In this document: piece after piece, positions 27,058 to 44,816 of the stretch
How the letters are laid out: every line of letters starts with the position of its first letter
How positions within the stretch are numbered: the first letter of the stretch is position 1
DNA from: Escarpia spicata
Lineage: Eukaryota > Annelida > Polychaeta > Sabellida > Siboglinidae
Length of the DNA: 64,000 bases
NCBI GenBank assembly: GCA_963995525.1
Contig: OZ023213.1
Span: 51,517,856-51,581,855, forward strand
Direction: 5' to 3'
The notes under the pieces: generated by a model
What the model was told of the DNA's origin: nothing
Databases searched by the model: none
The model's input: only the letters and a program-made list of their open reading frames with translations
Translations under genes and position numbers: made by a program

Positions 27058-28034
27058 ATGCAGCTTCTCGGTGATGCAGATGATAAATTAGATGACTTAA
27101 CAATACTTTCTCACTCACCCTATATAGACACTACATACTTAAAAGACGCTCTCGCCGCTACCATAGATAAGTTTACTATTATCAGCTTAAATGTTGAAAG
27201 CATTAATTCAAAAGTTAACTACATCTACCCACTCTCACTAGAGTTAGTCAATAAAGACATCGGTTTCAGTGCCACATGTTTGCAGGAAAGTTGGCTTTCT
27301 GATGACGCAGACTCAATATCAATTACCAAATTACAACATCATTCATCAAGGCAAAAATGCTCCGGCCACCGAGGTTTATTAATATATTTACATGTACGTT
27401 ATTCCTATATTGTATGACAATTATATGACTCATCCGATGTTTGGGAGGGACTTTTTATTAATGTATTTGGTGCAAATCTAAATGAAAACATCACAGTAGG
27501 AAACATATACAGACCGCCTAAGCTAAATAATAATGAACAAAGAATATCCACATCTATAGAAGAATTTGCACCGATACTTTCAAAATTGGGAAAGGAAAAT
27601 GCAGAAACAATAATAACAGGCGACTTTAACTAACATTGACCTGTTGAAAGTAAACAACAAACAAAAAGTCGGCGACTATTTTGATGAATTCTGTACAAAT
27701 GGATGTTATCCACAAAATACCTTGCCGACTCGTTTCTATCTATCCAACACTTATTAACCAGATATTCTGTAAGGTATCAAATGCCACCACTGCTTCCACA
27801 GCAGGTATAATTATGAGCAACATATCCGATCATTTACCATATTTCATAATTATCGATAAACTGTTATATAAACAAAGTGCTCCCAAATGGGTGACAATTA
27901 GGACAAACAATGAAAAGGCAACAACACAATATTATGAATCTGTAAGGCAATCGTGCATCATAGATCAATTAAATCTAAATGAGCTATCTGATCCAAACAC
28001 TAATTATAACTTAATTGAAAATATACACTTCCGA
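27058..28034 (+). pseudogene. LINE ORF2 endonuclease part, decayed
   Basis: Pieces of an AP-type endonuclease are visible: FTIISLNVESINSK, CLQESWLSDDA, then after stops NIYRPPKL, IITGDFN and ISDHLPYFIII. Several stops and frame changes occur between 27417 and 27680. The last frame runs open into the Polinton boundary and continues beyond 44816. Confidence 0.8.
28029..28034. other. 6-bp target site duplication, left (TTCCGA)
   Basis: TTCCGA directly precedes the AGTAGTATATGGG terminus and recurs at 44811-44816. Confidence 0.97.
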
Positions 28035-28164
28035 AGTAGTATATGGGTGGTTTACAATACGTAATCAGGGAGGGGTATGTGCTCCCATGGTCATTTTCTG
28101 ATGACCTAAGGCTATTTTCTATGACTTCCTGTTCCGTTACTCCATAGCGCCATCTAGCGAATGT
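28035..28164 (+). repeat. Left terminal inverted repeat, 130 bp
   Basis: It is base-for-base the reverse complement of 44681-44810 in my reading. Protein-primed replication by the element's polymerase is expected to start at these ends. Confidence 0.97.
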
Positions 28165-28430
28165 AATCAGGGAGGGGTATGTGCTCCCATGGTCATTTTC
28201 TGCTGACCTAAGGCTATTTTCTATGATGTGACATCCGTTACTCCATAGCGCCATCTAGCGAATGTGGCGGGTAAAACGGGCGGGCAGGCGGGTAGAACGG
28301 GCGGGCAAAACACTAGCGCCATCTAGCGAATGTGGCGGGTAAAACGGGCGGGCAGGCGGGTAGAACGGGCGGGCAAAACACTAGCGCTATCTAGCGACTG
28401 TGGTGGGTAAAACGGGTGGATAGACGGGTA
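28165..28430 (+). repeat. Tandem copy of the inner terminal repeat plus 68-bp minisatellite
   Basis: 28165-28265 repeats the inner 102 bp of the terminal repeat (28063-28164) with a few changes. Two 68-bp units (28266-28333 and 28334-28401) and a partial third follow. Each unit ends with the same AGCG(C)CATCTAGCGAATGT sequence that closes the terminal repeat. The right end of the element lacks this expansion. Confidence 0.93.
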
Positions 28431-28560: not shown

Positions 28561-28885
28561 AATGCACGTGTATGAAATAACGAACGAAACACCAAAGTAT
28601 ACGTGTGCACACGAATTTTATTGACTAAAGATACAAGCGTAATGAGTATATGAAACCGTGTTTTAGTAACCACAGGTGTGATGACACGACTTACGGGTGA
28701 GTGAACACCACGCCAGCGGTTCGTAGTAATATGATGATGATATTACGACTTATGGGTGACTGAACACCGCGACAGAGGTCGTGAGCTTACGGGTGTGTGA
28801 CCACCGCGTCATAGGCTCGAATCATATGATGACGATGATGACGATACCTGTTGTCCGTTAATGAAACACGGTATGTTGAAACATC

Positions 28886-29338
28886 TTAGTTCAATAGTTT
28901 AAGCCAGTCGAACACACGACAATCGTTTGCTACCAGATCAGTGCCGAAACCTTTCACGAATTCCTTCATAGGAAGTCCACGACAACGAAACATCAGATAA
29001 GCAACACAGTATTGTCCGCAAACATTAGATACGAGACTCTGAAGTCTCTTTGAATTATGAGTCCATTGTACGCAATGTTTATTCATGAATCGTCGGAATT
29101 CGACGTGTTGTGGCGGCAAGCCGTACCAGCAGAAGTATTCACCTTGTCTATTATCGTCCACGTACAGTGCTATCCAATGTTCTCCCGGTTTCGTTCTGTT
29201 GTGCGTGTTGCAGACGAAGGCAACTGGGTAAGTGTCTATCGTTTCGGTGAGGAGTACGTCTTTGGGTACGACCCTACGAACGATGTCCTTGGCGTACGTA
29301 TCCCGGAAGAGTAGACGGGTGATGTGCAGGGTTTCCAT
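28886..29338 (-). CDS. PRO: Adenain-type cysteine protease
   Basis: The 150-codon product starts at ATG 29338, whose A is the last base of the capsid gene's TGA (TGATG); a TTG one codon earlier is not needed. The protease family matures capsid proteins in adenoviruses and is a Polinton core gene. His54 lies in GEHWIALY, Gln100 in LQSLVSN and Cys107 in VCGQYC. The Gln-to-Cys spacing of 7 equals that of adenain. The third catalytic position, acidic in adenain about 17 residues after His, is not conserved: the segment reads GEYFCWYGLPP, with Cys-Trp where an acidic residue is expected. Glu67 might substitute, or activity may be reduced. It is the last gene of the minus-strand block. Confidence 0.9.
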   Translation of the reverse strand: METLHITRLLFRDTYAKDIVRRVVPKDVLLTETIDTYPVAFVCNTHNRTKPGEHWIALYVDDNRQGEYFCWYGLPPQHVEFRRFMNKHCVQWTHNSKRLQSLVSNVCGQYCVAYLMFRCRGLPMKEFVKGFGTDLVANDCRVFDWLKLLN

Positions 29339-30654: not shown

Positions 30655-31089
30655 CGTCGTCGTCGAATATGTCGGCTTCGCGTGTCTTTTGTAAGCGGCG
30701 GCGGCGCTGGCGGCGTGTCTTGTTAGTCGTCCGTCTCCTGACTGTACTGACTCGATTCCTAGGGAAGGAGTGTCTTATATTCCTCGACTTACGTGCTTGT
30801 ACACCGGCAGGGCTCATGATTTGACTCAACATGTCCCTACCGGCGGCCGTAACGCGACGTTTGGCAGACGTTTTGATGTTCTCCCCCGACAGGACGTCGT
30901 CGGCTATACGTGCACCGGTCGACACCGCTCTCTTTCCAAGAGCCACGGCGCCTCTCTTGACGAGTGGCATGATGGTACGTAGTAGACCTCCGAATAGACT
31001 TCCTAGACCGTGTCCTCGTTGGTAGCGGCACCTACAAAATAGGGAAGCGCGCCTCCCGCTTGTCGTGCGTAGTAGTCGTTGTAATTCAT
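30638..31089 (-). pseudogene. Basic pVI-like minor structural protein, one-base frame break
   Basis: The start ATG at 31089 follows the penton-like stop by one base. The first about 22 codons (with YARQAGGALPYF) lead to a TAG at 31005-31003. The rest (RGHGLGSLFGGLL, VKRGAVALGKRAV, then a strongly basic Arg-rich tail) is one frame away and open from before 31020 to 30638. The change of frame falls around 31021-31036. A GG pair followed by an amphipathic Gly/Leu-rich helix recalls adenovirus pVI, which adenain cuts after Gly-Gly. The role is inferred as an internal, DNA- or membrane-contacting capsid component. The break may be a real mutation, a sequencing error or programmed shifting. Confidence 0.65.
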
Positions 31090-31090
31090 C

Positions 31091-31897
31091 TCACTGAAAC
31101 AGTGGCGTCCGTCGTCGTCGGAAATGAAGTGTCGTCGTCAGTTTTCCACGTTCGAATGGCACGTGTCGACCGGCATCGTCTCTTATATCTATCTCTATCG
31201 TACCAAAGTCTTTGATCAGAACGGGTAGGTACTGGATCTTGTCGAAGGTCATCGACACGGTGTCGCTTTGTTTACCCCTCACCGGAACTATACGTAGCAG
31301 TGGAACGTGGCTGTCGCCAACGATTCGAGGTTCGATGACGCCCGTGTAGATGTAGAGTGATTCGAAACCTCGCGTCATGTCCACCACGGAGTCGGCATCG
31401 ATCACCGTTTCCTTCATCGTCTTCATCTTCCTCATATCTCCGTATAGTATGGTGTGACGGAATCCTAGAATGTTCTTAAATATTTCTCCGCTCACTATGG
31501 CATTCGATAGCAACACCACAAAAACCTTGTGCGTGATGGAGCTGTAGTATAGGCGCACGACATTATTTGGTAGCACTTTTGTTATAGCTTTGTTTATTGC
31601 TTTGACGAGATACTGTGGTCCCTGATAATATCCGCCTTCGATCTCTGTTTTCGTCGTAGTCATCTCGATCTCGTCATCTATATTTCGTAGCGCTATACCG
31701 AACCACGTGTCACTCTCTCTCACATTGTACCAACTATGAGGATAGATTATCTCCGCCAGACCACACTCCCACTCACCCCCCACCAAGTTGATACGTTGCG
31801 GTAGCGTCGTGATGTAGTTGGTCAACGTGTTGTCGGGATGCGTATTCATGGAAGCGTTGCTAGGTAGCGTCAGGTAGAAATCACTGCTGGTGGTCAT
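31091..31897 (-). CDS. mCP: Minor capsid protein (penton-like, single jelly-roll)
   Basis: The intact 268-codon frame begins with SDFYLTLPSNAS and contains DNTLTNYITTLPQRINL, WECGLAEIIYPHSWYNV and, near the C terminus, FGTIEIDIRDDAGRHVPFE then TTLHFRRR. This block order is that of the conserved Polinton minor capsid protein, predicted as a single jelly-roll occupying the vertices like penton base. It lies between the small membrane protein (17-nt overlap at its start) and the pVI-like gene, within the capsid module. Confidence 0.9.
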   Translation of the reverse strand: MTTSSDFYLTLPSNASMNTHPDNTLTNYITTLPQRINLVGGEWECGLAEIIYPHSWYNVRESDTWFGIALRNIDDEIEMTTTKTEIEGGYYQGPQYLVKAINKAITKVLPNNVVRLYYSSITHKVFVVLLSNAIVSGEIFKNILGFRHTILYGDMRKMKTMKETVIDADSVVDMTRGFESLYIYTGVIEPRIVGDSHVPLLRIVPVRGKQSDTVSMTFDKIQYLPVLIKDFGTIEIDIRDDAGRHVPFERGKLTTTLHFRRRRTPLFQ

Positions 31898-32180
31898 CCT
31901 GTTGTTGTTGTTCTTGTCGCAGCGTCGGATTGGGTAGCAGGTAACCCAACGAACTACTCAACAGGGCCGTCCACAGAGTTGGGTTCTCGTGTCCGACGGA
32001 TAGGTTATAGATGCTGACCAAGATGACACTGTACAAGACGATAACCTGACACACAAAAACGATCTCCTCTTTGGGACACGCAGTACCGAAGATGTGCCAC
32101 GGAGTCCTCTCTTTTTGTGGTGGTGCATCGACTTCTTCTACTTCTTCTTCTTCGACAACTGTTGTCGTCTCGTTCGTCAT
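31881..32180 (-). CDS. Small two-helix membrane protein
   Basis: The 99-codon product has an acidic N terminus (Glu run, residues 10-17) and two hydrophobic helices (about 40-60 and 67-83; VFVCQVIVLYSVILVSIYNL and LLSSSLGYLLPNP), then a Gln-rich tail. The arrangement with the LSSSLGYLLPNP block is, to my knowledge, recurrent in invertebrate Polintons between integrase and minor capsid genes. The function is unknown; virion membrane or release roles are guesses. The start overlaps the end of the integrase coding (ATGA). A 67-bp piece of this gene recurs at 43411-43477. Confidence 0.75.
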   Translation of the reverse strand: MTNETTTVVEEEEVEEVDAPPQKERTPWHIFGTACPKEEIVFVCQVIVLYSVILVSIYNLSVGHENPTLWTALLSSSLGYLLPNPTLRQEQQQQDDHQQ

Positions 32181-33312
32181 GAGTGGATGAATGACATCTC
32201 GTCGGACAGGTGACTAGTCTTTGTAGTCCAACGAGACCCTTGGCATCAATCCAACTGTTGAATTTCGAAGGGTATCCAAACCATTTCACCAACACCTCCC
32301 TTCGCCTTCCTACCTTGCGTCTCTGCACTATCGATTCCACGCGGTACAGTTTATCGATCGGAACCGTCACCTTCTGCAACTCCGGCTCGTAGAAGGTACC
32401 GTCCAGTGTCTCTCCGAGATCGTCCGTTAGACGATAGACGGGTGGATCGGATGGATGCACCTCGCGTATCGTGAATATTTCCTCTGTCCAATTCGCCATG
32501 TAACCTTTGTCGAACCGTCTCTTGACCTTGCTGATGCGTACGCGATCCCCCACGTGGTACTTGGGTACGCCCTTACCGTGATGACCACCGTACAAGGTCT
32601 GCCACACCTCTTCCTGATTAGTGTCATCCACCTGCGACGGAGCCATCTCGATGCTACGGTGGGGTGTGTCGTTGTACGTCCGCACCAGATCCGGAAGAAA
32701 CGTGGCGATACATCGATATCGCCACGTTTCTTTGTGTGTCAGGTATCGCCACATCCGCGTCTTTAGGGTGCGATTGAAGCGTTCCACGACGCTCGCCTTG
32801 GTCTCCTCGTTGTAGGTGGAGAAGTGTTGGATACCGTACTTTTCCAATACATCTCGAACGCTACGATTAAAGAATTCCAGACCTCTATCGGTCTGCAACA
32901 ACAGCGGTCGAACACCGTCGTTGGTGTAGAGTCCTTCCAGCGCCTTCGACACGGACGTCGCAGACTTGTTCTTCAGGGGAACGCATCGGGCGACTTTCGA
33001 GAAGACATCGATCACCGTGAGTAGGAAGGTCGTACCGTCGTTTTCTTTTTTCAGACTGGCCACGTCGACGAGATCGGCTTGCCACTGTTGATTCCGGCCT
33101 CCGACGACCACGCGTCGCCTGTTGAAATGAACTCTGACCGGTTTGTGTAGAGTATAGGCGTTCTGTTCCGATAGCCATTGTTCAACGATCTTTCTCGGTA
33201 CACGTTGTATAGGTCGGAAGTCGACTCGTCGCAAAGACGCGAGACCCCCGTAACTCCCTACCTTAGTAGGATCGAAGTAGACTTCCTGGAGCTTTTTCCT
33301 CTGAGATGCCAT
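32005..33312 (-). CDS. INT: Retroviral-type DDE integrase with chromodomain
   Basis: The 435-codon frame has the RNase H-fold catalytic residues Asp80 (QWQADLVDV), Asp142 (LLLQTDRGLEFFN) and Glu177 (KASVVERFNRTLK). An SH3-like region (YHVGDRVRISKVKRRF) and a chromodomain (about 322-362: YRVESIVQRR, EVLVKWFGYP, NSWIDAKGL) follow. It joins element ends to host DNA, producing the 6-bp duplication seen here. Residues after about 363 look non-native because they overlap the membrane-protein gene in another frame. In the neighbouring frame coding continues HLSDEMSFIHS and stops at the ATGA of that gene, so a one-base shift near 32,215 is likely. The catalytic part is intact. Confidence 0.93.
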   Translation of the reverse strand: MASQRKKLQEVYFDPTKVGSYGGLASLRRVDFRPIQRVPRKIVEQWLSEQNAYTLHKPVRVHFNRRRVVVGGRNQQWQADLVDVASLKKENDGTTFLLTVIDVFSKVARCVPLKNKSATSVSKALEGLYTNDGVRPLLLQTDRGLEFFNRSVRDVLEKYGIQHFSTYNEETKASVVERFNRTLKTRMWRYLTHKETWRYRCIATFLPDLVRTYNDTPHRSIEMAPSQVDDTNQEEVWQTLYGGHHGKGVPKYHVGDRVRISKVKRRFDKGYMANWTEEIFTIREVHPSDPPVYRLTDDLGETLDGTFYEPELQKVTVPIDKLYRVESIVQRRKVGRRREVLVKWFGYPSKFNSWIDAKGLVGLQRLVTCPTRCHSSTHDERDDNSCRRRRSRRSRCTTTKREDSVAHLRYCVSQRGDRFCVSGYRLVQCHLGQHL

Positions 33313-33416
33313 AGTCGTATAAGATAGTCGACGGTGATTCCGGTCACGATGTGAAGCGTGGCGTAAACGATACCGCTAAACAGACGAATGCTCCACGTCA
33401 TCATGCGTCGTCGTCT
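33313..33416. other. Intergenic gap upstream of integrase
   Basis: About 100 bp between the Ala/Pro-linker protein stop and the integrase start. On the minus strand TCTTATACGAC lies just before the start. No clear promoter can be claimed. Confidence 0.3.
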
Positions 33417-34208
33417 TTAAAGATTCTCCCAATACTGTGTCTTACGTGCTTCCGTCGGTGGTGTAGGGAAAGGGGTAGACGTCGAGTCCATCCGTTTACG
33501 ACGCGTGAGGGGTGTCCACTGCAGGGTTCGTCGCGCTCTACCGAGCGATCGTGTGGCCGCTGCCGCTACCGCACTCTTCTTTTGCGACTGCTGAATGTGT
33601 CTTTTCCTGTCCTGGTTATCCACCAACTCCATGGGTACGTTCGCGTCACCGAGTTGACGCGCAAACACCTGCCATCCCGTCGGATTACCGGTGGTCTTGC
33701 GCTTGCGTAGAACATCGTTTACGAGATCAACCACGTTACTTCCGCCTACCGCTACTCCTCTGTGCATGATCTCTCCTCGTGCGTTCCACTTGACGTCTCC
33801 TCCTTTGAGACGTTCCATCAGTTGCGTAGCTTTGCTTCGAAGGGCCTTTGGAACGCTGTTGACGACTTCCGTTTCTAAACCGCCCGCCCCCGCCGCAGGC
33901 GGGGGCGCCGGGACAATTGCCGCCGCCGCCGCAGCAGTGGGCACTGGCAATGATGGTTGTGGCGTGTCCACCACGTTCATCACGCGCACCGGTTCTCGCA
34001 TGCGACGATCGGACAACGCGTTGTAGCGTTGCAACACTTGATTATACATGATGACCTTGTCTCCGTCGCTGATATCCTGTCTATCGAGTATACCTTTCAT
34101 CTCGTTATCGAGGTCGTGTACCTTCCGCTCTAGGGTATTCGTTGGTGGTGCGCGAAGACTGTCCAAAAGTCGCGGATCTACCAAGGCCATCTTCCGTGTG
34201 TGGTCCAT
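33417..34208 (-). CDS. Conserved Polinton accessory/structural protein
   Basis: The 263-codon frame starts MDHTRK or, six codons later, at MALVDPRLL, the more family-like start. An N-terminal helical segment (DNEMKGILDRQDISDGDKV) is followed by an Ala/Pro linker (residues about 88-108), a conserved core (VPKALRSKATQLMERL, then WNARGEIMHRG and VVDLVNDVLRKRK) and a basic tail. I recognise this as a recurrent protein of animal Polintons placed between ATPase and integrase. Its function is not known; the capsid-gene neighbourhood suggests a virion component. Confidence 0.75.
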   Translation of the reverse strand: MDHTRKMALVDPRLLDSLRAPPTNTLERKVHDLDNEMKGILDRQDISDGDKVIMYNQVLQRYNALSDRRMREPVRVMNVVDTPQPSLPVPTAAAAAAIVPAPPPAAGAGGLETEVVNSVPKALRSKATQLMERLKGGDVKWNARGEIMHRGVAVGGSNVVDLVNDVLRKRKTTGNPTGWQVFARQLGDANVPMELVDNQDRKRHIQQSQKKSAVAAAATRSLGRARRTLQWTPLTRRKRMDSTSTPFPTPPTEARKTQYWENL

Positions 34209-34213
34209 GTCGT

Positions 34214-34654
34214 CTACTTGAGTAACACCTCTTTGAGCAAGGGTAGAATGATCGAAGTAGCCAACGGTGCTAGCAAAGCACCCAGGAAACCACCGGTCTG
34301 GTTCTCTTCGTCCTGGTTATTATTATTATTATTATTATTACCTCGTTGACGACGACGACGTCTCCCGACCGGTACGTTTCTTCGTCCCAAGCCCTGCAGC
34401 AGAATACGACGTCTCCTATCTGCTGTCTGACCTCTCTCTGACAACTCGCGCAGTTTTGTTTTGTATTTATTCAAACGTTGTCTCTGTACGGGAGTCAAGG
34501 GAATGTTCTTCTTCAATATGTTGTAGGCACACTCAGCCAATGCACACAAGAGATCAGCGTCAGCGTTGTTGATGATGGCTCGTCTCAATTTCGTGCTCTT
34601 GTATCTGTTGAGAGCCTGTATGCATAGGATATGTCTCTTCACGAGCTCGGACAT
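34214..34654 (-). CDS. Conserved basic Polinton protein with GG-hydrophobic tail
   Basis: The start is taken at ATG 34654 (MSELVKRHI); an in-frame ATG at 34723 lies inside the end of the ATPase gene and adds non-family residues. The 146 residues hold a conserved N-terminal block (ADADLLCALAECAYNILKK), a Lys/Arg-rich centre, an eight-Asn run from a TTA microsatellite (34318-34341), and a C-terminal GGFLGALLAPLATS hydrophobic segment. The Gly-Gly before the hydrophobic tail could be a protease processing site. The function is unknown; a packaged DNA-binding or membrane-active peptide is a guess. Confidence 0.75.
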   Translation of the reverse strand: MSELVKRHILCIQALNRYKSTKLRRAIINNADADLLCALAECAYNILKKNIPLTPVQRQRLNKYKTKLRELSERGQTADRRRRILLQGLGRRNVPVGRRRRRQRGNNNNNNNNQDEENQTGGFLGALLAPLATSIILPLLKEVLLK

Positions 34655-34691
34655 CCTGCAACTGAACAGACGATGTCCATGCGCAGTCGTC

Positions 34692-35315
34692 TTATAGCTT
34701 GGGTTGGTACACGTACTGAACACCGTCGTCCGGAAAGATGGTCGTGCGCAGACGCATGTCTTCAGGTGTGTCCTGTTTCAGATCAATCAGGAGATAACCG
34801 TATGGTAATGACGTGGCGTCTTTGAACGCTTCCTGTACAAACTTCAGCTGTCTCGGATACATCTGTCGTGCCAAGTGACCTATCTGCGACGCGTCGCGTG
34901 GATTCTTGAAGAGCACCATGTATTGCGCGTTCAGACTGATCGTGCGACTCTCCTTATTTTTTGGAAACAGGTTCTGCACGAGATAGAGAACGGAGGTGTT
35001 CTGATGATGACTCTTTTTCGTGAACAAGGTCGTGACCCTTTCATCCGTTTCCGCCATCAGATCGTCTATGACCACGAGGTTTCGCGTCGATGCATCGAAA
35101 TCACCCTTCGGCAAACCTTCCTCGAATCGTATCAAGTCGTTATCTATGGATGCGTAGGCGTTCTGCCACTCTCCGTAACACCACGTGATCTTCTCCGGAG
35201 GTGGATCTATCATCGTTGCAGCGTGACGTAGAATACGCGTCACGAAGGTACTCTTACCACATCCTGTTGGTCCCGCGATTATACAGGTGAAGGGATGTTT
35301 CCATCGCGTATCCAT
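34692..35315 (-). CDS. ATP: Genome-packaging ATPase (FtsK/A32-type)
   Basis: The intact 207-codon frame has a Walker A motif at residues 15-23 (GPTGCGKST), a Walker B at about 80-86 (LVVIDDLM) and a downstream QNLFPKNKESRTISLNAQY block. This matches the A32/FtsK-like ATPases that pump DNA into capsids of Polintons and NCLDV-type viruses. It is flanked by a small membrane protein (14-nt gap) and the GG-tail protein. Confidence 0.95.
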   Translation of the reverse strand: MDTRWKHPFTCIIAGPTGCGKSTFVTRILRHAATMIDPPPEKITWCYGEWQNAYASIDNDLIRFEEGLPKGDFDASTRNLVVIDDLMAETDERVTTLFTKKSHHQNTSVLYLVQNLFPKNKESRTISLNAQYMVLFKNPRDASQIGHLARQMYPRQLKFVQEAFKDATSLPYGYLLIDLKQDTPEDMRLRTTIFPDDGVQYVYQPKL

Positions 35316-35329
35316 GATCGTTCTAGTAT

Positions 35330-35524
35330 CTAGTAGACGGTTGCGTTCTCTGTTACGTTAGATGATAATACGACAATACCTCCACCACATGGAGAGCGAA
35401 GGGGAACGTAGAACAACTCGTATAGGATGTACAGCAGCAGCACTCCGATCGTTCCTAGTGTCAATGTTCCTACGACCACTCGCGTCCGTGACATGATGTT
35501 CTGTGACGATGGATTGCGTGACAT
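35330..35524 (-). CDS. Small single-span membrane protein
   Basis: A 64-codon frame lies between polymerase and ATPase genes. Residues about 15-38 form one hydrophobic helix (VVVGTLTLGTIGVLLLYILY), with a basic N terminus (MSRTR) and two N-glycosylation-type sequons in the short tail. The tight spacing to the ATPase start and the non-random hydrophobic profile support coding. The function is unknown. Confidence 0.6.
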   Translation of the reverse strand: MSRNPSSQNIMSRTRVVVGTLTLGTIGVLLLYILYELFYVPLRSPCGGGIVVLSSNVTENATVY

Positions 35525-35586
35525 CTATCTAAGTAACTTTTTTTTTGTCTACTGTCTGCCTACTAACCACGTGACAGCAAAGTGGT

Positions 35587-35621
35587 GCCTATAACCCCAA
35601 CTAACGTAGGGGCGCATTTCC
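35587..35621. promoter_or_regulatory. 35-bp repeated element, copy 1 (3' of PolB)
   Basis: This copy matches 40477-40511 at 32 of 35 positions. The core is ACCCCAACTAACGTAGGGGC with CCCC/GGGG able to pair across an 8-10 bp loop. It lies 48 bp after the polymerase stop and 63 bp before the small membrane gene. It could be a transcription start, a 3'-end signal or both. Confidence 0.5.
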
Positions 35622-35668
35622 GCTTTGTGTCAGTAGTGTTTCGGCGTAGACCACAGCAATCGTCACCA

Positions 35669-38600
35669 TCACACATCCACAGGTCCCGTTGTGACTCCGT
35701 CTTCGTGGACCACGCGCTTGGCATAGAAGTAGGTCAAGGCTGCGCGTTCCTGCATGTACGTCAACACAGACGAGTGATTCACCTGGAAGCCACGGTTGTT
35801 TCCGCTTCCGCTCCGTCGATTGGTGAGCACGTCCAGGAACACCTGCTTGTTGATGGTGTTGAGTCGCTTGTTTAGACCCTTGGTGCTGTATTTATCGACC
35901 GTACCCGAACAATAGTAGGTCTTGCTGCACATACCCAGGAAACAGTCGCCTGACCATTCGACCTTGAAGAGTCCCGGTGTTCTCTTGTCGTACGCCCTGC
36001 GCGTCTCGCAACACGTCTCGGTACCGTCCCACACACGTCCAGCCAGTCGACAGCGTACGTACTCGAATCGATGATCATCGCAACATTCGGACGGTAGCCA
36101 TTCGGAACGGTTACGAAAGTAGTCTTCGCGTAGTGTCGGGGTCACGAGGTCGTCGACGGACTCACCTGCTAGAGCCAAATAGGCGCTGTCCGTATCGGTT
36201 TCGCAGTACTCGAACAGAGGACGTTCCACGTACCTGACCATGAAGTCGTAGTAGAACTCCAACATGCGCAGTTTGGCCCACTGCAACACGAATAATCCCA
36301 CGTGTGTGGGCAGGGTGTATTTGATGGTGTGCTTGTGCATCTCTATCTCGTACGCATCGTTGGTCACGACGTCGAGTTGCCGGAAGCGACGATTGTTGAT
36401 GACCATCGATGCCCTCTTCTCTGTACAATAGCTGACTTCACGGTGCCTATCGACGTTGGTGATAAATTTCCCATAGGAAGAATTGCCCATCAGTTTGTTG
36501 GTGTCCGCGATCATGGCCTTGTCGGGGTGGACGTCTCCTTCGCGACGCGCAGTGGACACCGCCTCACCGAATCGTCGGAAGCAGGCGATCGGTGTGTATT
36601 CGATGACCTGATAGATGTGGGTCACCTCCAGTCCGTGTTCCAGATACCATCGCAAGAGAGGTGTTGCGAGCAAGATCTTATCTCCACGATAACTTCCGAT
36701 GAGCATGCGACGCGGGGTTTTCTTGATATCGTGTTCTTCGGCGTATCGACGCATATACGGTCCGAGGTCATCGCGGGTCATGTGAATGTTCTTGAAGATG
36801 GGCTGCATCTCGGCAAAGTGCGCGCGCAATTCCTCCGGTACGTGAATGTCGCACTGAATCATTCCGAAAACCCTGCCATTACGTACCCCTGTCAGGATCT
36901 CTTGTGATGTCATCTTCCATGGCACGTCGCGTCGACGACGACGAAAGGCGGCGTTCAGAAACAGTTTCACACACGGATCGCGTTTCGTGACCTTCCACTC
37001 GCATTCCCACATCTCGACGACCTCGACAAAGTGACGAAGGTAGCTCGTGTTCTTTCGTGTTTCGTCGAGGAGATGAGCCATGGGTTTCCCGTTGACCTTG
37101 TTGACGTCAAGACCGGTGCACGGACATCCGTGATAGAAGCATCCGTGAAACTGATAGGCTGTGTTTATTTCGCTGCACCAACCGTCCACCAGGAGTTTAC
37201 CGATGCGCTTCTCTCGTCCGTTGGACTGGTGACGTATGACGCGTCCCGTGCTTTCGGACTCCCACGACAACCATTCGGAGGCCATCTGTCCGGTGGGCTG
37301 TGCTGCTTCCGGTCGGAAGTCCTTCTCTTCTCGTCGTCGTGTATACCATCCTGTTGGCATGTCCTGTGATAGAGACCACAGATAGAATGCATTCGCATCA
37401 TAGCCGACAATGGACTGACACGTTCGAGCTGCATCACCGTAATCCTTCCGACGTATCTTCGTGACCCCTTTCTCGTGATGTCTGGTGAAGATGAGCGAAG
37501 GTCCTCCAACGATGTTATCTCTGATCAGTTGATGGACATCCTTGTTCGTCTCATTGAAGAGGGTGAAGAAGGTCTTCTCCGGTACATAGTTGAACAGGTG
37601 GCTCAAGGTCAAACCGGGTATACTGATGGCTTGTTTGAACATGTCGAGACCACGTTGTTGGTAGAAGGCAAACTGTTTGTCGATGGCCTCTAAGAACGGT
37701 ACAACATCTCTGTTGTTGTACCAGACGAGAAAATCTCGCAACGTCTTCATGTTGTTGTCTCGCCACGCCTCTTGACATCGGGTATAGTCCTCATCGGAAA
37801 TACCTTCGTTCTTCAGTCTACTGAAAAAGGTCTCTATGGGAGGTAGAGCGGTGTCGTCGAGTCTCTCCAACCTGTCCATGTATTCGTACGGGAAGTGACC
37901 TTTCGTAACCTCGCAACCGTACCCTTTCAGGTACTTATCGTACGAGAATCCTGGGGCGATATAATGAGTCATATCAAGGAATTTCAGGTTATCCGTCGAT
38001 AGACACATAAACGTGTTGCCACGTTTGATGACGTGAAAGTCTCCAGGATCCTCGTTCTCTTCCTCCTCCTCCTCCTCCTCCTCCTCCTCCTCCTGTATCT
38101 CCTCGTTCTCTTCTTCTCTTTCTTTTGGTGTGGATAGGAAGTAGGATATCAGGAACTGTTTGATGACGTTCAGATCGTACCTGCTCGAGTTGAATCCGAT
38201 GACGGGTAACTGATGAAGCCAACCGTACAATTGACCCATGAGTGTCTTGTAGGGATTGGTTGGTTTTCGCTTAGACTCCTTGTCCTCCTTCACCGATGCC
38301 GCCTCGTTCTCGTCCCAGGTCGCGATTTCTAACGCGAGTTCTTGAAGGACGCTCTCGTAATCGTCTATCATGATTTCGTAGGCAGCATTGCTCATAGACT
38401 GAAGCATGGACATCATGTCGGACACCAACTTGTTGCTATCACCATCAGTGATAAGACATCGCGCTTCTTCGAATCCAGGCACGTTACTCGCCAGTGACAC
38501 ACTCAACGGCACGTGACGAGACACCCAATGAACCTTGTTGCTGTCCGATGGAAGGTGTGACGTATCGAACCAGGACTCGAAGTCGAAGGTAGCACGATAG

Positions 38601-40168
38601 GGGTAATACCGTAAGGAGTCGGGGACATGAATGTTTTCGTCGTCCAAACGCTGGAAGACTGTCGGCGTCGGATGGTAGACACCACCGGGATAGATTTTTC
38701 GCACGCCACACTTACACCTACGCTCGTGTCTCTCTAGTTGATACGCGTCTTTCCACAACGAGTCACCACATTTCCTACAACGATATGAGTGACAGTACAT
38801 GTTGATGTCTTGTATATAGGAAAAGTGTGTCTCGTACATATTGATGTACAAGGTGTCGGAATAGTGACACAATGAACGACGTACGAGTTCGGCGGTCACC
38901 TTTCCACCTTCTACTTCCGTTGGTTCGATGAGGGTGTAGACGCACACATTGATCTCAAAGGTGGTCTCGATACGATAGAGGTCGTCCATTGTCACTCCCT
39001 CAAAGTCTTTCATAGACACTCCTCCTCCTCCTCCTCCTCCTCCTCCTCCTCCTCCTCCTCCTCCTTCGTCTTGCTGCTCGTACTTCTCGTAGAGTACCTT
39101 CACAGTGGGTTCCAGGTAACGTGGGTCACATCCACGATGCAGAGCCAGACAACGGAAGAAGCACAGATTGTCGGTGTACTTCTTGTTGTTGTTGACTTCT
39201 CTTTCTAGACTGATGATGGCAAAGTTATTCTTGATGTACCTGGAAACGGTGATGTCCACGCATCCTATAGGATGGTCTACGATGTGGTTGACGAAGAAGG
39301 TGACGTTCGTGACCCTCTCGCATACCCATTGACTGTTCGGACGTTGATTGATAGCCCACTGCAACACGTCTGTTTCTCGGATACGCTCCAGAAATACATC
39401 AAAGTCTTCGGTGTTGGTAATCAGACACGGTTCATCGAGGTAACGTCCACAACAGTTACTTGATGAATGATAATATCTATACCTATTGGTGATCTTGTTC
39501 CTCAGCACAAATCCGTAACTAAGATTAATCTTAAAGGCGTGTTTCTGTTGACGAAACATGATCTTCAAGGATGGTTCTAGATGAGTCGTGTCCGGTGTCG
39601 TCACCCTGTAATTGAAAGTGGATTGAACGGGTCCTCTGTTCACGTGACTTCTGATGGTTGACCAGTGGTTTCGAACGACATCTTGCAGATGATCGTTGTC
39701 CAAGAGGGGAGGTTGTATGGGATCGATGTTGTTGTCGTCGTCACGTGGTGGTGGCTCTTCGCGTCTCGTTCGCTTGGTTGACTTCCTCTTGTTCCTCATG
39801 ACTTCTTCTCGTCTTCTACATACCTTGATATGACGTAACAAGTTGTCACGTCTTGTGAATTCACGTGCGCAAATCTCGCAGCGGTGGATATCGTTTTTCT
39901 CCACAGGTACCTTACCACATGACGTCTTCGTGTGACGTAACAAGGTGTATCGTCTCGCGAACTCTTTTGAACATACCTGACATCGATGGGTGGTTCTTTT
40001 GGATTCAGAAGATGGCGCCACTCGCGACGGTCCTTTGTTGTAGTAGGCATGATCGTCTTCGATAACTCGTGGTGGTGGTACCGATAAATGACTTAGATGG
40101 ATGTGACGTTGCAAATCCTCGTATGTATCGCTGACGATACCACAGTGACGACAAACGTGCTTCTTCAT
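35669..40168 (-). CDS. POLB: Protein-primed family B DNA polymerase with zinc fingers and OTU-like segment
   Basis: The intact frame is 1,499 codons. Three C2H2 fingers open it (CRHCGIV..HIHLSH, CQVCSKEF, CEICAREF; residues about 5-115). An OTU-like segment follows, with TDNLCFFRC (Cys about 333) and HFSYIQDI (His about 448), then another zinc-binding stretch. Exonuclease motifs are DFES (about 527), FNSSRYDLN and YNNRD. Polymerase motifs are GYDANAFYLW (A, about 920), NKLMGNSSYGK (B, about 1,226) and DTDSAY (C, about 1,323), then KYSTKGLNK. It copies the element from its protein-primed ends. Two in-frame triplet expansions give poly-Gly (39014-39064) and poly-Glu (38056-38091). Confidence 0.97.
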   Translation of the reverse strand: MKKHVCRHCGIVSDTYEDLQRHIHLSHLSVPPPRVIEDDHAYYNKGPSRVAPSSESKRTTHRCQVCSKEFARRYTLLRHTKTSCGKVPVEKNDIHRCEICAREFTRRDNLLRHIKVCRRREEVMRNKRKSTKRTRREEPPPRDDDNNIDPIQPPLLDNDHLQDVVRNHWSTIRSHVNRGPVQSTFNYRVTTPDTTHLEPSLKIMFRQQKHAFKINLSYGFVLRNKITNRYRYYHSSSNCCGRYLDEPCLITNTEDFDVFLERIRETDVLQWAINQRPNSQWVCERVTNVTFFVNHIVDHPIGCVDITVSRYIKNNFAIISLEREVNNNKKYTDNLCFFRCLALHRGCDPRYLEPTVKVLYEKYEQQDEGGGGGGGGGGGGGGGVSMKDFEGVTMDDLYRIETTFEINVCVYTLIEPTEVEGGKVTAELVRRSLCHYSDTLYINMYETHFSYIQDINMYCHSYRCRKCGDSLWKDAYQLERHERRCKCGVRKIYPGGVYHPTPTVFQRLDDENIHVPDSLRYYPYRATFDFESWFDTSHLPSDSNKVHWVSRHVPLSVSLASNVPGFEEARCLITDGDSNKLVSDMMSMLQSMSNAAYEIMIDDYESVLQELALEIATWDENEAASVKEDKESKRKPTNPYKTLMGQLYGWLHQLPVIGFNSSRYDLNVIKQFLISYFLSTPKEREEENEEIQEEEEEEEEEEEENEDPGDFHVIKRGNTFMCLSTDNLKFLDMTHYIAPGFSYDKYLKGYGCEVTKGHFPYEYMDRLERLDDTALPPIETFFSRLKNEGISDEDYTRCQEAWRDNNMKTLRDFLVWYNNRDVVPFLEAIDKQFAFYQQRGLDMFKQAISIPGLTLSHLFNYVPEKTFFTLFNETNKDVHQLIRDNIVGGPSLIFTRHHEKGVTKIRRKDYGDAARTCQSIVGYDANAFYLWSLSQDMPTGWYTRRREEKDFRPEAAQPTGQMASEWLSWESESTGRVIRHQSNGREKRIGKLLVDGWCSEINTAYQFHGCFYHGCPCTGLDVNKVNGKPMAHLLDETRKNTSYLRHFVEVVEMWECEWKVTKRDPCVKLFLNAAFRRRRRDVPWKMTSQEILTGVRNGRVFGMIQCDIHVPEELRAHFAEMQPIFKNIHMTRDDLGPYMRRYAEEHDIKKTPRRMLIGSYRGDKILLATPLLRWYLEHGLEVTHIYQVIEYTPIACFRRFGEAVSTARREGDVHPDKAMIADTNKLMGNSSYGKFITNVDRHREVSYCTEKRASMVINNRRFRQLDVVTNDAYEIEMHKHTIKYTLPTHVGLFVLQWAKLRMLEFYYDFMVRYVERPLFEYCETDTDSAYLALAGESVDDLVTPTLREDYFRNRSEWLPSECCDDHRFEYVRCRLAGRVWDGTETCCETRRAYDKRTPGLFKVEWSGDCFLGMCSKTYYCSGTVDKYSTKGLNKRLNTINKQVFLDVLTNRRSGSGNNRGFQVNHSSVLTYMQERAALTYFYAKRVVHEDGVTTGPVDV

Positions 40169-40270
40169 GACGCCGCGTCTCCATCTACAACTGAAGGACG
40201 AAGGATCCTTGTCTATCTATATATGTAAACAGGGACACTATGTGATGACGTGGCTACGTATAAAAAACGA

Positions 40271-40313
<43 letters not shown>

Positions 40314-40476
40314 CCGCAAAGTCACTCTTTGAAACGAAAGAACAACGGACAAGCAAGAAGGCTGTTACATGTACCTTTATTTCTATTATACTATCAATTA
40401 CAATATTAAAAAAATCGAAAAACCTACTACTACTACTACTACTACTATGATTATGTTAAGTATACTACAACGAGGC
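40169..40476. other. Polymerase upstream region with microsatellites
   Basis: It holds a (GT)n run at 40271-40310 and a (TAC)n run near 40423-40446. On the minus strand a TA-rich CATATATAG about 50 bp before the polymerase ATG is a weak TATA candidate. No gene seen. Confidence 0.5.
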
Positions 40477-40511
40477 GCCTCTTACCCCAACTATCGTAGG
40501 GGCGCATTTCC
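40477..40511. promoter_or_regulatory. 35-bp repeated element, copy 2 (5' of PolB)
   Basis: The second copy of the 35587-35621 element, same orientation. It lies 30 bp after the stop of the 40541-40771 ORF and 309 bp upstream of the polymerase start. Confidence 0.5.
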
Positions 40512-40540
40512 TCCTTGTTATAGTACACACACACACACAA

Positions 40541-40771
40541 CTAATTTGTGTCAACAAAATCTACATGACTATATAGTTCTTTGCGGATGATTGACATCAT
40601 TGCGTCAATATATTCATCTTTTATAATATTTGTCGCAATCGAAAGACAACAGTCCTGCACTGATCGTTTAAGAGTGCGTGGTGTCGATGAATAGAGGGCG
40701 TTCGATAGACGCATAATGTCTCTTTCTAGAGAAGCTATAGCTGCAAAAGGTTCTCTGTACCCCAGAGACAT
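40541..40771 (-). CDS. Unknown small helical accessory ORF
   Basis: A 76-codon frame from ATG 40771 is helical by composition (ASLERDIMRLSNALYS, IDAMMSIIRKELYSH). The same frame stays open upstream to about 40840, reading CNGHVIWATFLDC, and begins right after a TAG that could be a splice acceptor. The coding part may therefore be a 3' exon. No family recognised. Confidence 0.45.
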   Translation of the reverse strand: MSLGYREPFAAIASLERDIMRLSNALYSSTPRTLKRSVQDCCLSIATNIIKDEYIDAMMSIIRKELYSHVDFVDTN

Positions 40772-40850
40772 ACAGTCTAAAAATGTCGCCCATATTACAT
40801 GGCCATTACATGGCCATCGGGGGATAAAGCGAATATCGATCTATCCCCCT

Positions 40851-41189
40851 TCAGTTCTTCGTATTCTGTTGTTGTTGTTGTTGCGTCGTCGTCGTCATCA
40901 TCATCATCTCATCATCATCATCACAGGTCATGTCTAGCTGGATGATGTCATCATCATCACAGGTCATGTCTAGCTGGATGATGTCATCAGGAGATGATTT
41001 TGACGCGGTGGCGTCATCACACGACATGTCCAACGTTGGTGTGTGAGGGTGCTGCTGTTGTTGATGACGCTCGTTATGTAACAGCTCAAGGAGACGTTGA
41101 TGTAACGATACTTCAACACGTAATCGACGCGGGATTTTCTTTAGTGGCGGCGGCGTGTCATAATCATCATCATCGTCGTCGTTATTCAT
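40851..41189 (-). CDS. Unknown acidic, low-complexity accessory ORF
   Basis: A 112-codon frame has an Asp-rich N terminus, a basic KKIPRRLR segment, then two tandem 36-bp units encoding DDIIQLDMTCDD, and a Met/Thr/Gln homopolymer tail from ATC, ACG and TTG triplet runs. No domain is recognised. The repeats may have inflated the frame, but the start and the charged middle look coding. Confidence 0.4.
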   Translation of the reverse strand: MNNDDDDDDYDTPPPLKKIPRRLRVEVSLHQRLLELLHNERHQQQQHPHTPTLDMSCDDATASKSSPDDIIQLDMTCDDDDIIQLDMTCDDDDEMMMMTTTTQQQQQQNTKN

Positions 41190-41328
41190 ATATGCGCGAT
41201 GTATAGACGCTAATCCGACACCATAATCATGTTCCTATAAAACAAAATAAAAAAAGGACAAGATTATATCATGATAAGTATACGTGACTCTTCTTTTTTT
41301 TTTTTTTAAATATATATCTCGTTAGATA

Positions 41329-41470
41329 CCATTGTTAATTAACACACAGGTGTTCTCTCATCAGACACCAGTGTTAATAATAATAATAATAATAATTAAC
41401 ACAGGTGATCACTCGTCGGACACCAGTGTTAATTAACACACAGGGTATCTCTCGTCAGACACCAATTAAT
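41329..41470. repeat. Three iteron-like palindromic repeats
   Basis: Three copies of TGTTAATTAACA-type palindromes are each followed by CACAGG, CTC(A/G)TC and (A/G)GACACCA. The middle copy is expanded by an (ATA)n run. They sit between two accessory ORFs, just 3' of the 178-codon ORF. Protein-binding sites or a byproduct of tandem duplication are both possible. Confidence 0.75.
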
Positions 41471-42002
41471 AGAAAGGGTCGTCAAAGACATGGTGCCTCT
41501 CGTCACACGCCAATCTTACGTCGTGAGTACGCAGGATGGCTTCGAGACGTGGTACAGTATTATCACGTAACCACTCTTTCACACGTGGGATGGTATAGTC
41601 ACCCCACTCCGGTGTATGCGATGCATAGCCGATTTGGTCCACTGCCACATTCAATGCATGCCACATCTTGGGCTGATCCACGCTGTACAGTGACTTGTTA
41701 ATGGTTTTGTACTCATGACATAGTATCTTGGATGCGTACATCACACAGGCGCTGGACATAGTGCACATAAATACATCCTCGTCTATCATCTCCTCCGTGC
41801 GTCGTTGAATGGCATTGATCTTCTCTACACTCTCCCGTAAATCACTACTAGTGTGAAGAACATCATCGTCATCATCATCACTACTCCATTTACACGAGCC
41901 ACATAAAATGACACTTGCATCATCATCGCTGTCATCCGGATGACTCCTTTTCACAGTTTTAGATCCCACAGGTGAATTGAAATGGCGACTATCATCGTCC
42001 AT
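41466..42002 (-). CDS. Unknown accessory protein, acidic N terminus and helical C terminus
   Basis: A clean 178-codon frame starts at ATG 42002, 74 bp after the RPA-like stop. Residues 24-47 are Asp/Ser-rich around an ILCGSCKW pair of cysteines. The remainder is predicted helical (SVEKINAIQRRTEEMI, VKEWLRDNTVPRLEAILRTH). It has no motif I can name. Its position beside the RPA-like gene suggests early, host-interacting or replication-accessory expression, but that is inference. Confidence 0.6.
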   Translation of the reverse strand: MDDDSRHFNSPVGSKTVKRSHPDDSDDDASVILCGSCKWSSDDDDDDVLHTSSDLRESVEKINAIQRRTEEMIDEDVFMCTMSSACVMYASKILCHEYKTINKSLYSVDQPKMWHALNVAVDQIGYASHTPEWGDYTIPRVKEWLRDNTVPRLEAILRTHDVRLACDERHHVFDDPFY

Positions 42003-42076
42003 GCACTCGCTGAGGTGTTCAAACTACAACATAGGAAATTACAGAATGGTCATTTCTCGGTGGTGACTTGCTGCAA

Positions 42077-42565
42077 TTACTGTCGCAAGACTTCAAGTAC
42101 TGTCACGGAATAGTTCACGTATATTCCCTTTGATGTCTTTTTGATGGTCACCATAGCCTGTTTGCCATGCAGGGTGGTCAGTAGTCGATAACGGTCTTCG
42201 TCTGTTTTCAGTGACATATAGTCGTTGGCCGATACACCACCTACAGCCCGCTGGGTTATGGCGTCAAATGCAGTGACCCAGAGTTCAGTGCCTTTCCGGT
42301 CACTCAACAAAATACCCATACAATATTTATAAACAGACGTGCCCTTCTGTTTGCCGTGGACCGAACATGCGAGGGTACCATGGTGACCTTTTGTCTCAAT
42401 CAGAATGACTTTGCGGTTACAGGTATGACATGATGCATAGCATACATATTTCTGATTGAGAGCACATGTTACAATATTTAGTGGTCTGTCAAAAGCATAA
42501 GAGCCATCACTTACAGTTTCTAGATCTTTCAGGTTGATAGTGTTGTCAGAAGAAGCAGACGCCAT
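42077..42565 (-). CDS. RPA70-like OB-fold/zinc-ribbon ssDNA-binding protein
   Basis: The intact 162-codon frame starts MASASSDN. Residues about 22-60 read GSYAFDRPLNI, then YASCHTCNRKVILI. Further cysteine/histidine residues (ACSVHG) complete a zinc ribbon, and KYCMGILLSDRKGTELWVTA supplies OB-fold strands ending W-V-T-x-F. This order matches the C-terminal DNA-binding domain of RPA70-type proteins. A homologue, broken, lies at 17681-18288 in the 5.9-kb element. The inferred role is coating displaced single strands during protein-primed replication. A TATA box (42655-42664) precedes it on the minus strand. RPA-like genes are not, to my knowledge, a standard Polinton gene. Confidence 0.75.
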   Translation of the reverse strand: MASASSDNTINLKDLETVSDGSYAFDRPLNIVTCALNQKYVCYASCHTCNRKVILIETKGHHGTLACSVHGKQKGTSVYKYCMGILLSDRKGTELWVTAFDAITQRAVGGVSANDYMSLKTDEDRYRLLTTLHGKQAMVTIKKTSKGIYVNYSVTVLEVLRQ

Positions 42566-42654
42566 CTTGTTGTCCTTGATTCACGATGAATGCTTGAAAA
42601 TATACGAATAGTTGAGAGCGACAGTTGTTATGCTTTCTAAACGATTTACCCGGG

Positions 42655-42664
42655 GTTTATATAC
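42655..42664 (-). promoter_or_regulatory. TATA box candidate for the RPA-like gene
   Basis: On the minus strand the sequence reads GTATATAAAC, about 90 bp upstream of the RPA-like start codon, beside a GC-rich CCCGGG block. Confidence 0.6.
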
Positions 42665-42682
42665 ACACAAAGTGCTCAGTCA

Positions 42683-42870
42683 TCAAACTTGTGACTGTTA
42701 GTCAGCTGTCAATCTTGTGACTGTTAGTCAGCTGTCAATCACCGGAACAAACAAAGAAAGAGACCAGCGATTGGTCTTGTGGTTGTAGACGGATGGGGGT
42801 GGTGGTGGATGTAACGGGAGCAAACAAAGAAAGTAACCAGTCATCATTCTTGTGACTGTGAGAGGATGTT
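42683..42870. repeat. Short direct repeats in the divergent intergenic region
   Basis: CTTGTGACTGTTAGTCAGCTG occurs twice in tandem (about 42687-42738) with a partial third near 42848. GCAAACAAAGAAAG-type phrases occur at about 42747 and 42820. The region separates the minus-strand RPA-like gene from the plus-strand spliced gene and probably contains both promoters. Confidence 0.65.
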
Positions 42871-43209
42871 AGATAGACGATAAGGCAGGTGCAGGATGTA
42901 GCCATCTTTTCTTACGGAGCATTTTCCTGTCTTTAATAAGATGGCCGGGATGTTGCATCTATTTTTACGGACTAGTTTAGTGAGGACAAAGAAAGACAGG
43001 ATATACATCCTTTAACTGGTTCGTTAAAAAGAGGAAGACTAATCCGAGACGGAACGTCACAAGACGCCCTGATAAAACTAACGTAGTTACTGTTACACCG
43101 AGGGAACTAATTAGGTGTCTCGTTATGACACAGGATGTTGACTGGCTATCTTGAAAGTTCGTGTGTTAAGTTTTCAAATCATTTCATAACACAACAACAA
43201 CAAAACAAG

Positions 43210-43650
43210 ATGGCTGAACGTGGAGTTATACCCTGGATTAAAATACGAGAGGAATGGAAAGAGAAACAGAGAGAAATAGAAAGGAAGATGTGAGTATCTA
43301 TTATTATTATTATTATTTACTTTGATGTCAAGTAATTACACAGTGTTCTTAGAAGTTGTTTATATTTAACCGCTAGTTCTGACACATATATGAAAAGTAT
43401 ATAGTTACCCGGGTTCTCGTGTCCAACAGATAGGTTATAGATGCTGACCAAGATGACACTGTACAAGACGATAACCTATCATTATTCATTTATCATATTT
43501 AACAGTTGTCTATCATCTTTTTTTAAGCGCTGCTCGAGAAGGAGCTACAGATGATGAAGAATACGAGGAAGAGGAGGAAAAAGAAGAAGACACAGAGGAT
43601 TATAAAGAATCAACAAAAGAATCGGACTTAGAGTGCACGTAAGTGTTCAA

Positions 43651-43686
<36 letters not shown>

Positions 43687-44433
43687 TGTCTCACTCTAGG
43701 TTGGTTGGTTGGTTGGTTGGTTAGGACTGTGTACTTTTATATTTCCTCAGATAGAGAAGCACCGTGTATACATTATTCATAATGACCTTATTCTTTGACA
43801 AATTCAAGATGGTTTCGCTGTCAATTCATAGTGGTTCTTGGCAACTTCCTCTTACATGAAACAAGACGCTCGTTAATGACAGGATTTTACATAATAAATA
43901 TAGTCGCGAGACAGGAAGTATGCAGACACAAGACACTTCATTAACAGTGTAGGACGGGAAGTATGGAGACACAAGACACTTCGTTAATGTTACATAGTGA
44001 AAAAATAGATGAGTGTTTTCAAGATTTTGTTTATGTGTACAATTTTAATTCCTATACATACACAAACTAGTTCTAACCAGTTCTGATCTGGGGGACTTCC
44101 CTTCATCCGTCCACACACACAAAAATAACTTGTGGTTGCCTAGCAACGCTCTGTCTGGTTATAGCAACGCTGTGGTTATGTAAGATTTAACGTATCATTG
44201 CTGCTATAGTTTTCAAAGTTTTTTTATACTTACCTTACAGAGAAGAAGAGATCCAGGATGAGCATCATTGTCATTTCTATGCGAGTCTCCGTGAGATAAA
44301 GAAAAGACCTCTCATTGAACCGGTATCTCCATGGTATGAACCGACTCCATCTCCCGTAGATACCGGTGATAGACAGGTATTTTGTTGTCATACTGACAGC
44401 GAAGATGAAGGCTGTTGTCATATGGATATGTAA
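43210..44433 (+). CDS. Three-exon LxCxE-motif accessory gene
   Basis: Exons 43210-43289, 43528-43638 and 44241-44433 join in phase to 127 codons plus stop. The donors are GTGAGT and GTAAGT; the acceptors are TTTTTAAG and TTACCTTACAG. Read without splicing, each exon meets a stop at or next to its donor, so splicing is required. The product has a Trp/Lys/Glu-rich N terminus, a Glu-rich tract (about 37-47), LECTE at residues 61-65 (an LxCxE motif coded across the exon 2/3 junction) followed by more acids, a Pro-rich stretch (SPWYEPTPSPV) and C-terminal VFCCH and GCCH cysteine pairs. LxCxE binds retinoblastoma-family pockets in E1A, E7 and large T antigens. A similar cell-cycle role is inferred. 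No sequence homology to those proteins is claimed. Confidence 0.72.
43411..43477 (+). repeat. 67-bp internal copy of the small membrane protein gene
   Basis: It matches 31981-32047 at 65 of 67 positions. It lies inside intron 1 of the LxCxE gene, oriented so that the intron RNA is complementary to the membrane-protein transcript. Confidence 0.95.
43645..43722. repeat. (TTA)n and (GGTT)n microsatellites in intron 2
   Basis: A TTA run is followed by GGTTGGTTGGTT. Another TTA run sits at 43297-43318 in intron 1. Confidence 0.9.
43905..44000. repeat. Tandem duplication in intron 2
   Basis: GGAAGTATG.AGACACAAGACACTTC(A/G)TTAA occurs twice about 47 bp apart. Confidence 0.8.
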
Positions 44434-44457
44434 ACAAACTAACAAACAATCAAACAC

Positions 44458-44634
44458 TTTTCCTATCGATTTGGAATATGTAACAATAAATAAATAAACA
44501 GTTTCTACTTTGATTATATGTTGTTTGTTGAGTTATTGAGACGATCTTTTCCTATCGATTTGGAATATGTAACAATACATAAATAAACAGTTTCTACTTT
44601 GATTATATGTTGTTTGTTGAGTTATTGAGACGAT
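44458..44634 (+). repeat. 88-bp tandem duplication carrying polyadenylation signals
   Basis: The unit starting TTTTCCTATCGATTTGG and containing ATAAATAAACAG occurs twice. The first copy has AATAAATAAATAAA about 50 bp after the LxCxE gene stop, a fitting poly(A) signal. Confidence 0.9.
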
Positions 44635-44680
44635 TAGAGACACTTCTCATCACTAGAGGCGCTTAGGTCAACAAATGATG

Positions 44681-44810
44681 ACATTCGCTAGATGGCGCTA
44701 TGGAGTAACGGAACAGGAAGTCATAGAAAATAGCCTTAGGTCATCAGAAAATGACCATGGGAGCACATACCCCTCCCTGATTACGTATTGTAAACCACCC
44801 ATATACTACT
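44681..44810 (-). repeat. Right terminal inverted repeat, 130 bp
   Basis: The exact reverse complement of 28035-28164, ending CCATATACTACT. Confidence 0.97.
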
Positions 44811-44816
44811 TTCCGA
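44811..44816. other. 6-bp target site duplication, right (TTCCGA)
   Basis: TTCCGA directly follows the element and matches 28029-28034. Confidence 0.97.

What the first reader, a model, noticed from the sequence alone, without database searches (positions are those of the whole stretch)
43210..44433. Spliced LxCxE gene in the right arm of a Polinton
Three exons with consensus splice sites join in phase. Unspliced reading hits stops at or next to each donor. The joined product carries LECTE (residues 61-65), coded across an exon junction, within acidic sequence, plus C-terminal Cys pairs and a Pro-rich stretch. LxCxE is the retinoblastoma-pocket motif of E1A, E7 and large T. This is also the only plus-strand gene of the element, facing the minus-strand block, as expected of an early host-manipulation gene. 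The effector role is inferred.
Basis: partly seen in the sequence, partly recalled or inferred. Interest (0 to 1): 0.87.

Follow-up and report, generated by a model that had tools for sequence, protein, structure and literature searches.

The report
Spliced right-arm gene of tubeworm Polintons
A virus-like transposon of what is probably a deep-sea tubeworm carries a real three-exon gene, one of a large family in that genome, and the tumour-virus-like LxCxE motif noticed in it occurs only in some lineages of the family.

Summary
The element is an end-to-end Polinton (28035-44810, 99% TIRs, 6-bp TSD) of what is probably a vestimentiferan tubeworm.

The same genome gave 150 scored exon-3 relatives. 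Exon 3 evolves as coding sequence, and 20 of 40 divergent loci keep the RPA-like gene upstream on the opposite strand. The gene is real.

LxCxE is not conserved. Of 22 divergent loci with a read junction (of 40), 3 have LxC; the others read LEY, EEC, EEEC, SEC, SEY or SEW. Of 100 listed exon-2 ends, 22 read DLEC and 32 DLEY. Rb binding in this lineage stays possible; the host has Rb-family exons. The Cys pairs are not conserved.

Rb-motif "oncoid" genes of adintoviruses are in print; this is a spliced, fast-changing variant.

The parts
28029..28034 (.). left target-site duplication TTCCGA
28035..28169 (.). left terminal inverted repeat of the Polinton, begins AGTAGTATATGG
41466..42002 (-). neighbouring ORF (178 aa, unknown function; holds a chance LACDE)
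42077..42565 (-). RPA-like gene (Rep_fac-A_C), divergent neighbour, kept upstream in 20 of 40 divergent loci
43210..43289 (+). exon 1 (26 codons plus AT)
43290..43527 (+). intron 1, GTGAGT..TTTAAG, with a 67-nt copy of the integrase 3' end at 43411-43477
43528..43638 (+). exon 2 (C, 36 codons, AC), acidic, ends DLEC|T
43639..44240 (+). intron 2, GTAAGT..CTTACAG
44241..44433 (+). exon 3 (A, 63 codons, stop): helix, then a disordered tail with the family motifs SPWYD/E and P[IV]DTGD
44676..44810 (.). right terminal inverted repeat
44811..44816 (.). right target-site duplication TTCCGA

Best explanation
It is a genuine three-exon gene of a recently inserted tubeworm Polinton. It codes a small acidic protein, one helix and disordered stretches, that most likely works as a host-interaction protein through short linear motifs. 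Shown: gene structure, large family, coding selection on exon 3, kept neighbourhood. Inferred: that the partners are host proteins, and that expression is early. The family's common function does not rest on LxCxE, because that site turns over (LEC, LEY, EEC, SEC, SEY, SEW, each followed by T-E). In the lineages with DLEC|TE, this one among them, the site may dock on the host Rb pocket; I put that at about 0.4.
For: Intact exons and borders; 150 scored exon-3 relatives in the genome; AG acceptor in 64 of 70 loci; median dN/dS 0.34 over 245 usable of 946 pairs; differences by codon position 180/171/325 in 21 disjoint pairs; RPA-like neighbour in 20 of 40 divergent loci; one helix then low confidence in the exon-3 model; junction states; DLEC also in two lineages whose exon 3 is 52-70% identical (L037, L042) and DLAC in L068; Rb-family exons in the host.
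Against: No transcript. DNA of introns and flanks matches the divergent loci about as often as that of exons. Two named close pairs have dN/dS near 1 (0.93 and 1.10), and in 3 of 21 disjoint pairs the third position is not the most variable. In 18 of 40 divergent loci no junction could be read. No relative outside this genome was found for this gene (at most chance-level).
Confidence: 0.55

Rival explanations
1. The LxCxE is incidental. The junction scaffold x-E-[C/Y/W]-T-E nearly always ends in E, so LxCxE needs only L and C at two changeable positions; the conserved job lies in the exon-3 helix and the SPWYD/PIDTGD tail.
For: Junction turnover; 3.3% chance from composition alone; an LxCxE-type string also in ORF 41466 that relatives do not keep; conserved columns lie in exon 3.
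Against: DLEC or DLAC is kept in four lineages of one half of the tree (ours, L037, L042, L068), and the Leu is kept also in the DLEY forms.
Confidence: 0.3
2. Rb binding through LxCxE is the core function of the gene, an E1A/E7 analogue.
For: DLxCxE in acidic context; 26 of 30 close loci keep it; Rb-family exons in the host; adintovirus oncoid genes as precedent.
Against: Only 3 of 22 divergent loci with a read junction have LxC; 22 of 100 listed exon-2 ends are DLEC.
Confidence: 0.12
3. Not an expressed gene: decayed or chance open frames near the terminus.
For: DNA conservation of introns is similar to that of exons; no transcript evidence.
Against: Codon-position bias and low dN/dS; recurring exon borders.
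Confidence: 0.03

Closest known systems
Oncoid genes of adintoviruses (PMC11071296, PMC10812802, passages read; Starrett et al. 2021 seen only as a citation)
   Same: Accessory gene of a PolB- and integrase-bearing animal element, named for short motifs such as those of Rb-interacting tumour-virus proteins
   Different: Here three exons, the motif coded across an intron, and a family in which the motif changes between lineages; no sequence comparison with published oncoid proteins was possible
Adenovirus E1A, papillomavirus E7, polyomavirus large T (recalled)
   Same: LxCxE in acidic, mostly disordered sequence; E1A and large T are spliced
   Different: No sequence relation found; no conserved zinc-binding Cys pairs; LxCxE not kept in the family
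Polintons/Mavericks
   Same: TIRs, 6-bp TSD, PolB, integrase with chromodomain, ATPase, protease-like and capsid genes on one strand
   Different: The spliced right-arm gene family, for which and 87 of the held library showed no description

Membership tests
Polinton (the element) | TIRs and 6-bp target-site duplication | tested here: met
   136 nt at 99%, TTCCGA on both sides
Polinton (the element) | PolB, rve integrase, packaging ATPase, protease, capsid | tested here: met
   PF03175, PF00665 and PF02456 over cut-off, capsid with 3965 homologues; protease only below its cut-off (PF00770, E 0.0027)
Adintovirus as defined in PMC11071296 | integrase with C-terminal chromodomain | tested here: met
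   PF00385, E 1.5e-8
Adintovirus as defined in PMC11071296 | PolB with N-terminal OTU-like domain; hexon recognisable by BLASTP against the references | tested here: inconclusive
   No OTU family in the Pfam scan of PolB; reference hexons were not at hand
[quoted passage not shown]
   LECTE in this copy; absent in most divergent relatives that could be read
E1A/E7-like Rb-binding protein | LxCxE conserved in homologues | tested here: not met
   3 of 22 divergent loci with a read junction; 22 of 100 listed exon-2 ends
E1A/E7-like Rb-binding protein | physical binding to a pocket protein | not testable with these tools
   RB_B exons exist in the host; binding needs a bench test

The most novel reading that the evidence does not exclude
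Within one animal genome a Polinton gene family has repeatedly switched a host-docking site, coded across an intron, between a Rb-pocket motif (LxCxE) and aromatic forms (LxYxE, SxWxE): a record of an arms race over changing host targets, with palindromic non-autonomous elements carrying parts of the gene along.
Probability: 0.2. Interest if true: 0.68.

Novelty: new variant of a known kind. Interest (0 to 1): 0.45.

Why it matters
If the LEC forms bind Rb and the LEY, EEC and SEW forms do not, one genome holds many natural variants of a viral host-docking site side by side, and gain and loss of a tumour-virus-like motif in a Polinton becomes directly testable. If none bind, the case shows how easily LxCxE arises in an acidic scaffold, a caution for gene classes defined by motif alone.

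Tried and rejected
Scans of viral contigs with the RPA-like protein, the capsid protein, PolB and the alignments A1 and A2 found no relative. A protein search with exon 3 alone found none; by its length rule it could reach only proteins of about 35 to 110 residues, so full-length relatives were not tested. Genome contigs gave one related element, an Escarpia contig binned with its symbiont (L001), which ends inside PolB and lacks the right arm; another contig of that assembly has an RPA-like gene but no exon 1 or 2 was found on the part held (L002), and exon 3 gave only chance-level matches there. Rejected: a zinc-type domain in exon 3 (Cys not conserved; helix plus low-confidence tail); LACDE/ILCHE of ORF 41466 as a second conserved motif; a sister copy of the gene at the second TIR pair 14308-20210 (no exon match elsewhere in the window). 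PDB and Pfam gave nothing of weight for exon 3: best PDB E 2; two Pfam families, one member each of 27, best E 0.044. The 2021 adintovirus paper is not held.

Full report
Claim.

Check. The sequence statements hold: exon lengths 80, 111 and 193 nt, split codons AT|C and AC|A, stops at both donors, LECTE across the exon 2/3 border. The element is complete by its ends: TIRs 99% alike over 136 nt, beginning AGTAGT, with TTCCGA on both sides. On the minus strand it carries an integrase with chromodomain, an ATPase, an RPA-like gene, a protease-like gene below the Pfam cut-off, PolB and a capsid protein with 3965 homologues. LxCxE alone has a 3.3% chance in shuffles of this composition, so relatives had to decide.

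Host. The nearest capsid relative with a name is on an Escarpia laminata symbiont contig (79%); others come from Lamellibrachia satsuma (67-76% in the listed rows) and Ridgeia piscesae (63%); most listed rows have no name. The window lies in an assembly of 1.06 Gb in 1097 contigs. I take the host to be a vestimentiferan tubeworm; the species is not told.

Relatives. Exon 3 as query gave 150 scored matches of 619 candidates in the same genome, from 100% to 37% identity, most of them starting at residue 1, that is at the exon border. I studied 30 close loci (L003-L032) and 40 divergent ones (L036-L075); the remaining 80 matches were not fetched. The AG acceptor stands before the split base in 64 of 70 loci and in 34 of 40 divergent ones. 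An exon 1 of the type IPWxx[LI]R was found by regular expression in 10 of 40 divergent loci, with further variants seen by eye. The RPA-like gene lies upstream on the opposite strand in 20 of 40 divergent loci.

Selection. Of 70 loci, 63 have at least 45 open codons in exon 3, giving 44 different proteins. Of their 946 pairs 245 have dS between 0.1 and 1.5; the median dN/dS is 0.34 and 98.8% lie below 1; pairs are not independent, and two close pairs stand at 0.93 and 1.10. In 21 disjoint pairs the differences by codon position are 180, 171 and 325 over 1285 codons; the third position is the most variable in 18 of 21. Against this, DNA of introns and flanks matches the divergent loci about as often as that of exons.

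The motif. Among the 30 close loci the junction reads DLEC in 26 and was not read in 4; one of the 26 (L031) has a stop in exon 2, two (L027, L028) have stops in exon 3, and in L003 exon 2 is displaced. Among the 40 divergent loci it was read in 22. LxC: L037, L042 (DLEC), L068 (DLAC). LEY: L036, L038, L044, L051, L052, L055, L056. EEC: L039, L049, L061, L072. EEEC: L066. SEC: L053 (no clear donor), L058, L067. SEY: L047. SEW: L050, L060, L071. L055 has in addition a DLEC exon 2 further upstream. A pattern for the exon-2 end found 121 places against 14 for its reversed control; it requires the middle E, so DLAC-type ends are missed. Of the 100 places listed, 22 read DLEC, 32 DLEY (19 in one tandem array), 19 ASEW, 7 VSEC and 20 other strings, some of which will be chance.

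Tree. An exon-3 tree of 43 loci (24 near-identical close loci and 3 with early stops left out; weak backbone) puts LEC, LAC, LEY and most EEC in one half and SEC, SEY and SEW in the other, with L039 (EEC) the exception. L003 was labelled LEC after its identical relatives. Among the 26 rows with a state, LxC against the rest needs at least 4 changes, and finer states need 9.

The protein. Exon 3 is modelled as one helix (residues 2-20) followed by a low-confidence tail, mean pLDDT 71. D40 is invariant in 27 sequences; E1, H8, F12, P27, W31, P38, G42, D43 and D55 nearly so; no Cys is among them. The host has 4 RB_B matches over the cut-off; two of the exons were translated and resemble the Rb B box (likeness recalled). 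A target for LxCxE therefore exists.

Mechanism. I think the gene makes a small, mostly disordered adaptor that docks host proteins by short motifs, from a promoter region shared with the RPA-like gene. Host action and early timing are inference. Rb docking in the DLEC lineages is possible and testable, but it is not the family's common function.

Known kind. PMC11071296 (outline, section 16 and passages; [quoted passage not shown] PMC10812802 (passages) says that adintovirus oncoid genes resemble retinoblastoma-interacting proteins and cites Starrett et al. 2021, which is not held. Other searches, seen as listings only, showed nothing on this gene: adintovirus with LXCXE, no paper; polinton, LxCxE and retinoblastoma, none of the 20 listed holds polinton; adintovirus, oncoid, polinton and maverick, 40 of 144 listed; polinton with oncoprotein, one paper, the one above; polinton with tubeworm, none. 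The kind is known; the spliced, lineage-variable tubeworm family appears to be a new variant.

Noticed in passing
L076 (G000 C15:35706000-35714000), centres L077-L094: Between outward-facing pairs of exon-3 matches lies palindromic DNA: in L076 two arms of 3870 nt are 100% complementary around 166 nt, and no protein of the window's Polinton matches inside. 17 of 18 other pair centres match L076, and 8 of 18 show inverted self-matches of 100 nt or more. Of 33 neighbouring matches 3-20 kb apart, 23 face outward. They look like non-autonomous palindromic Polinton derivatives; some keep exons 2 and 3 (L011, L013), others have L076-like DNA to within 0.3-0.7 kb of exon 3 (L063, L073, L075).
   Followed up: partly
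G000 C3:52174097-52243747 and C3:60103502-60158512: Tandem arrays: exon-3 matches on one strand about 17.2-18 kb apart, and DLEY junctions mostly about 2.9 kb apart.
   Followed up: no
window 43411-43477 and 31981-32047: A 67-nt, 97% direct repeat puts the 3' end of the integrase gene region into intron 1. It is near exon 1 or 2 in 22 of 30 close loci and in none of the 40 divergent ones, so it looks like a recent copying event.
   Followed up: partly
window 14308-20210: A second pair of inverted repeats (132 nt, 90%) with AGTAGT-type ends, perhaps a small or decayed Polinton-like element.
   Followed up: no
L001 (QGON01000029.1): A contig filed under a bacterial symbiont of Escarpia laminata is an animal Polinton, 89% identical to the window's element over 28542-39969: host contamination of a MAG.
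   Followed up: yes
window 40851-41189 (-): A small acidic ORF with the tandem repeat IIQLDMTCDDDD, no Pfam family.
   Followed up: no
G000, whole genome: 987 candidate places for the RPA-like protein, 150 scored: a heavy Polinton load.
   Followed up: no
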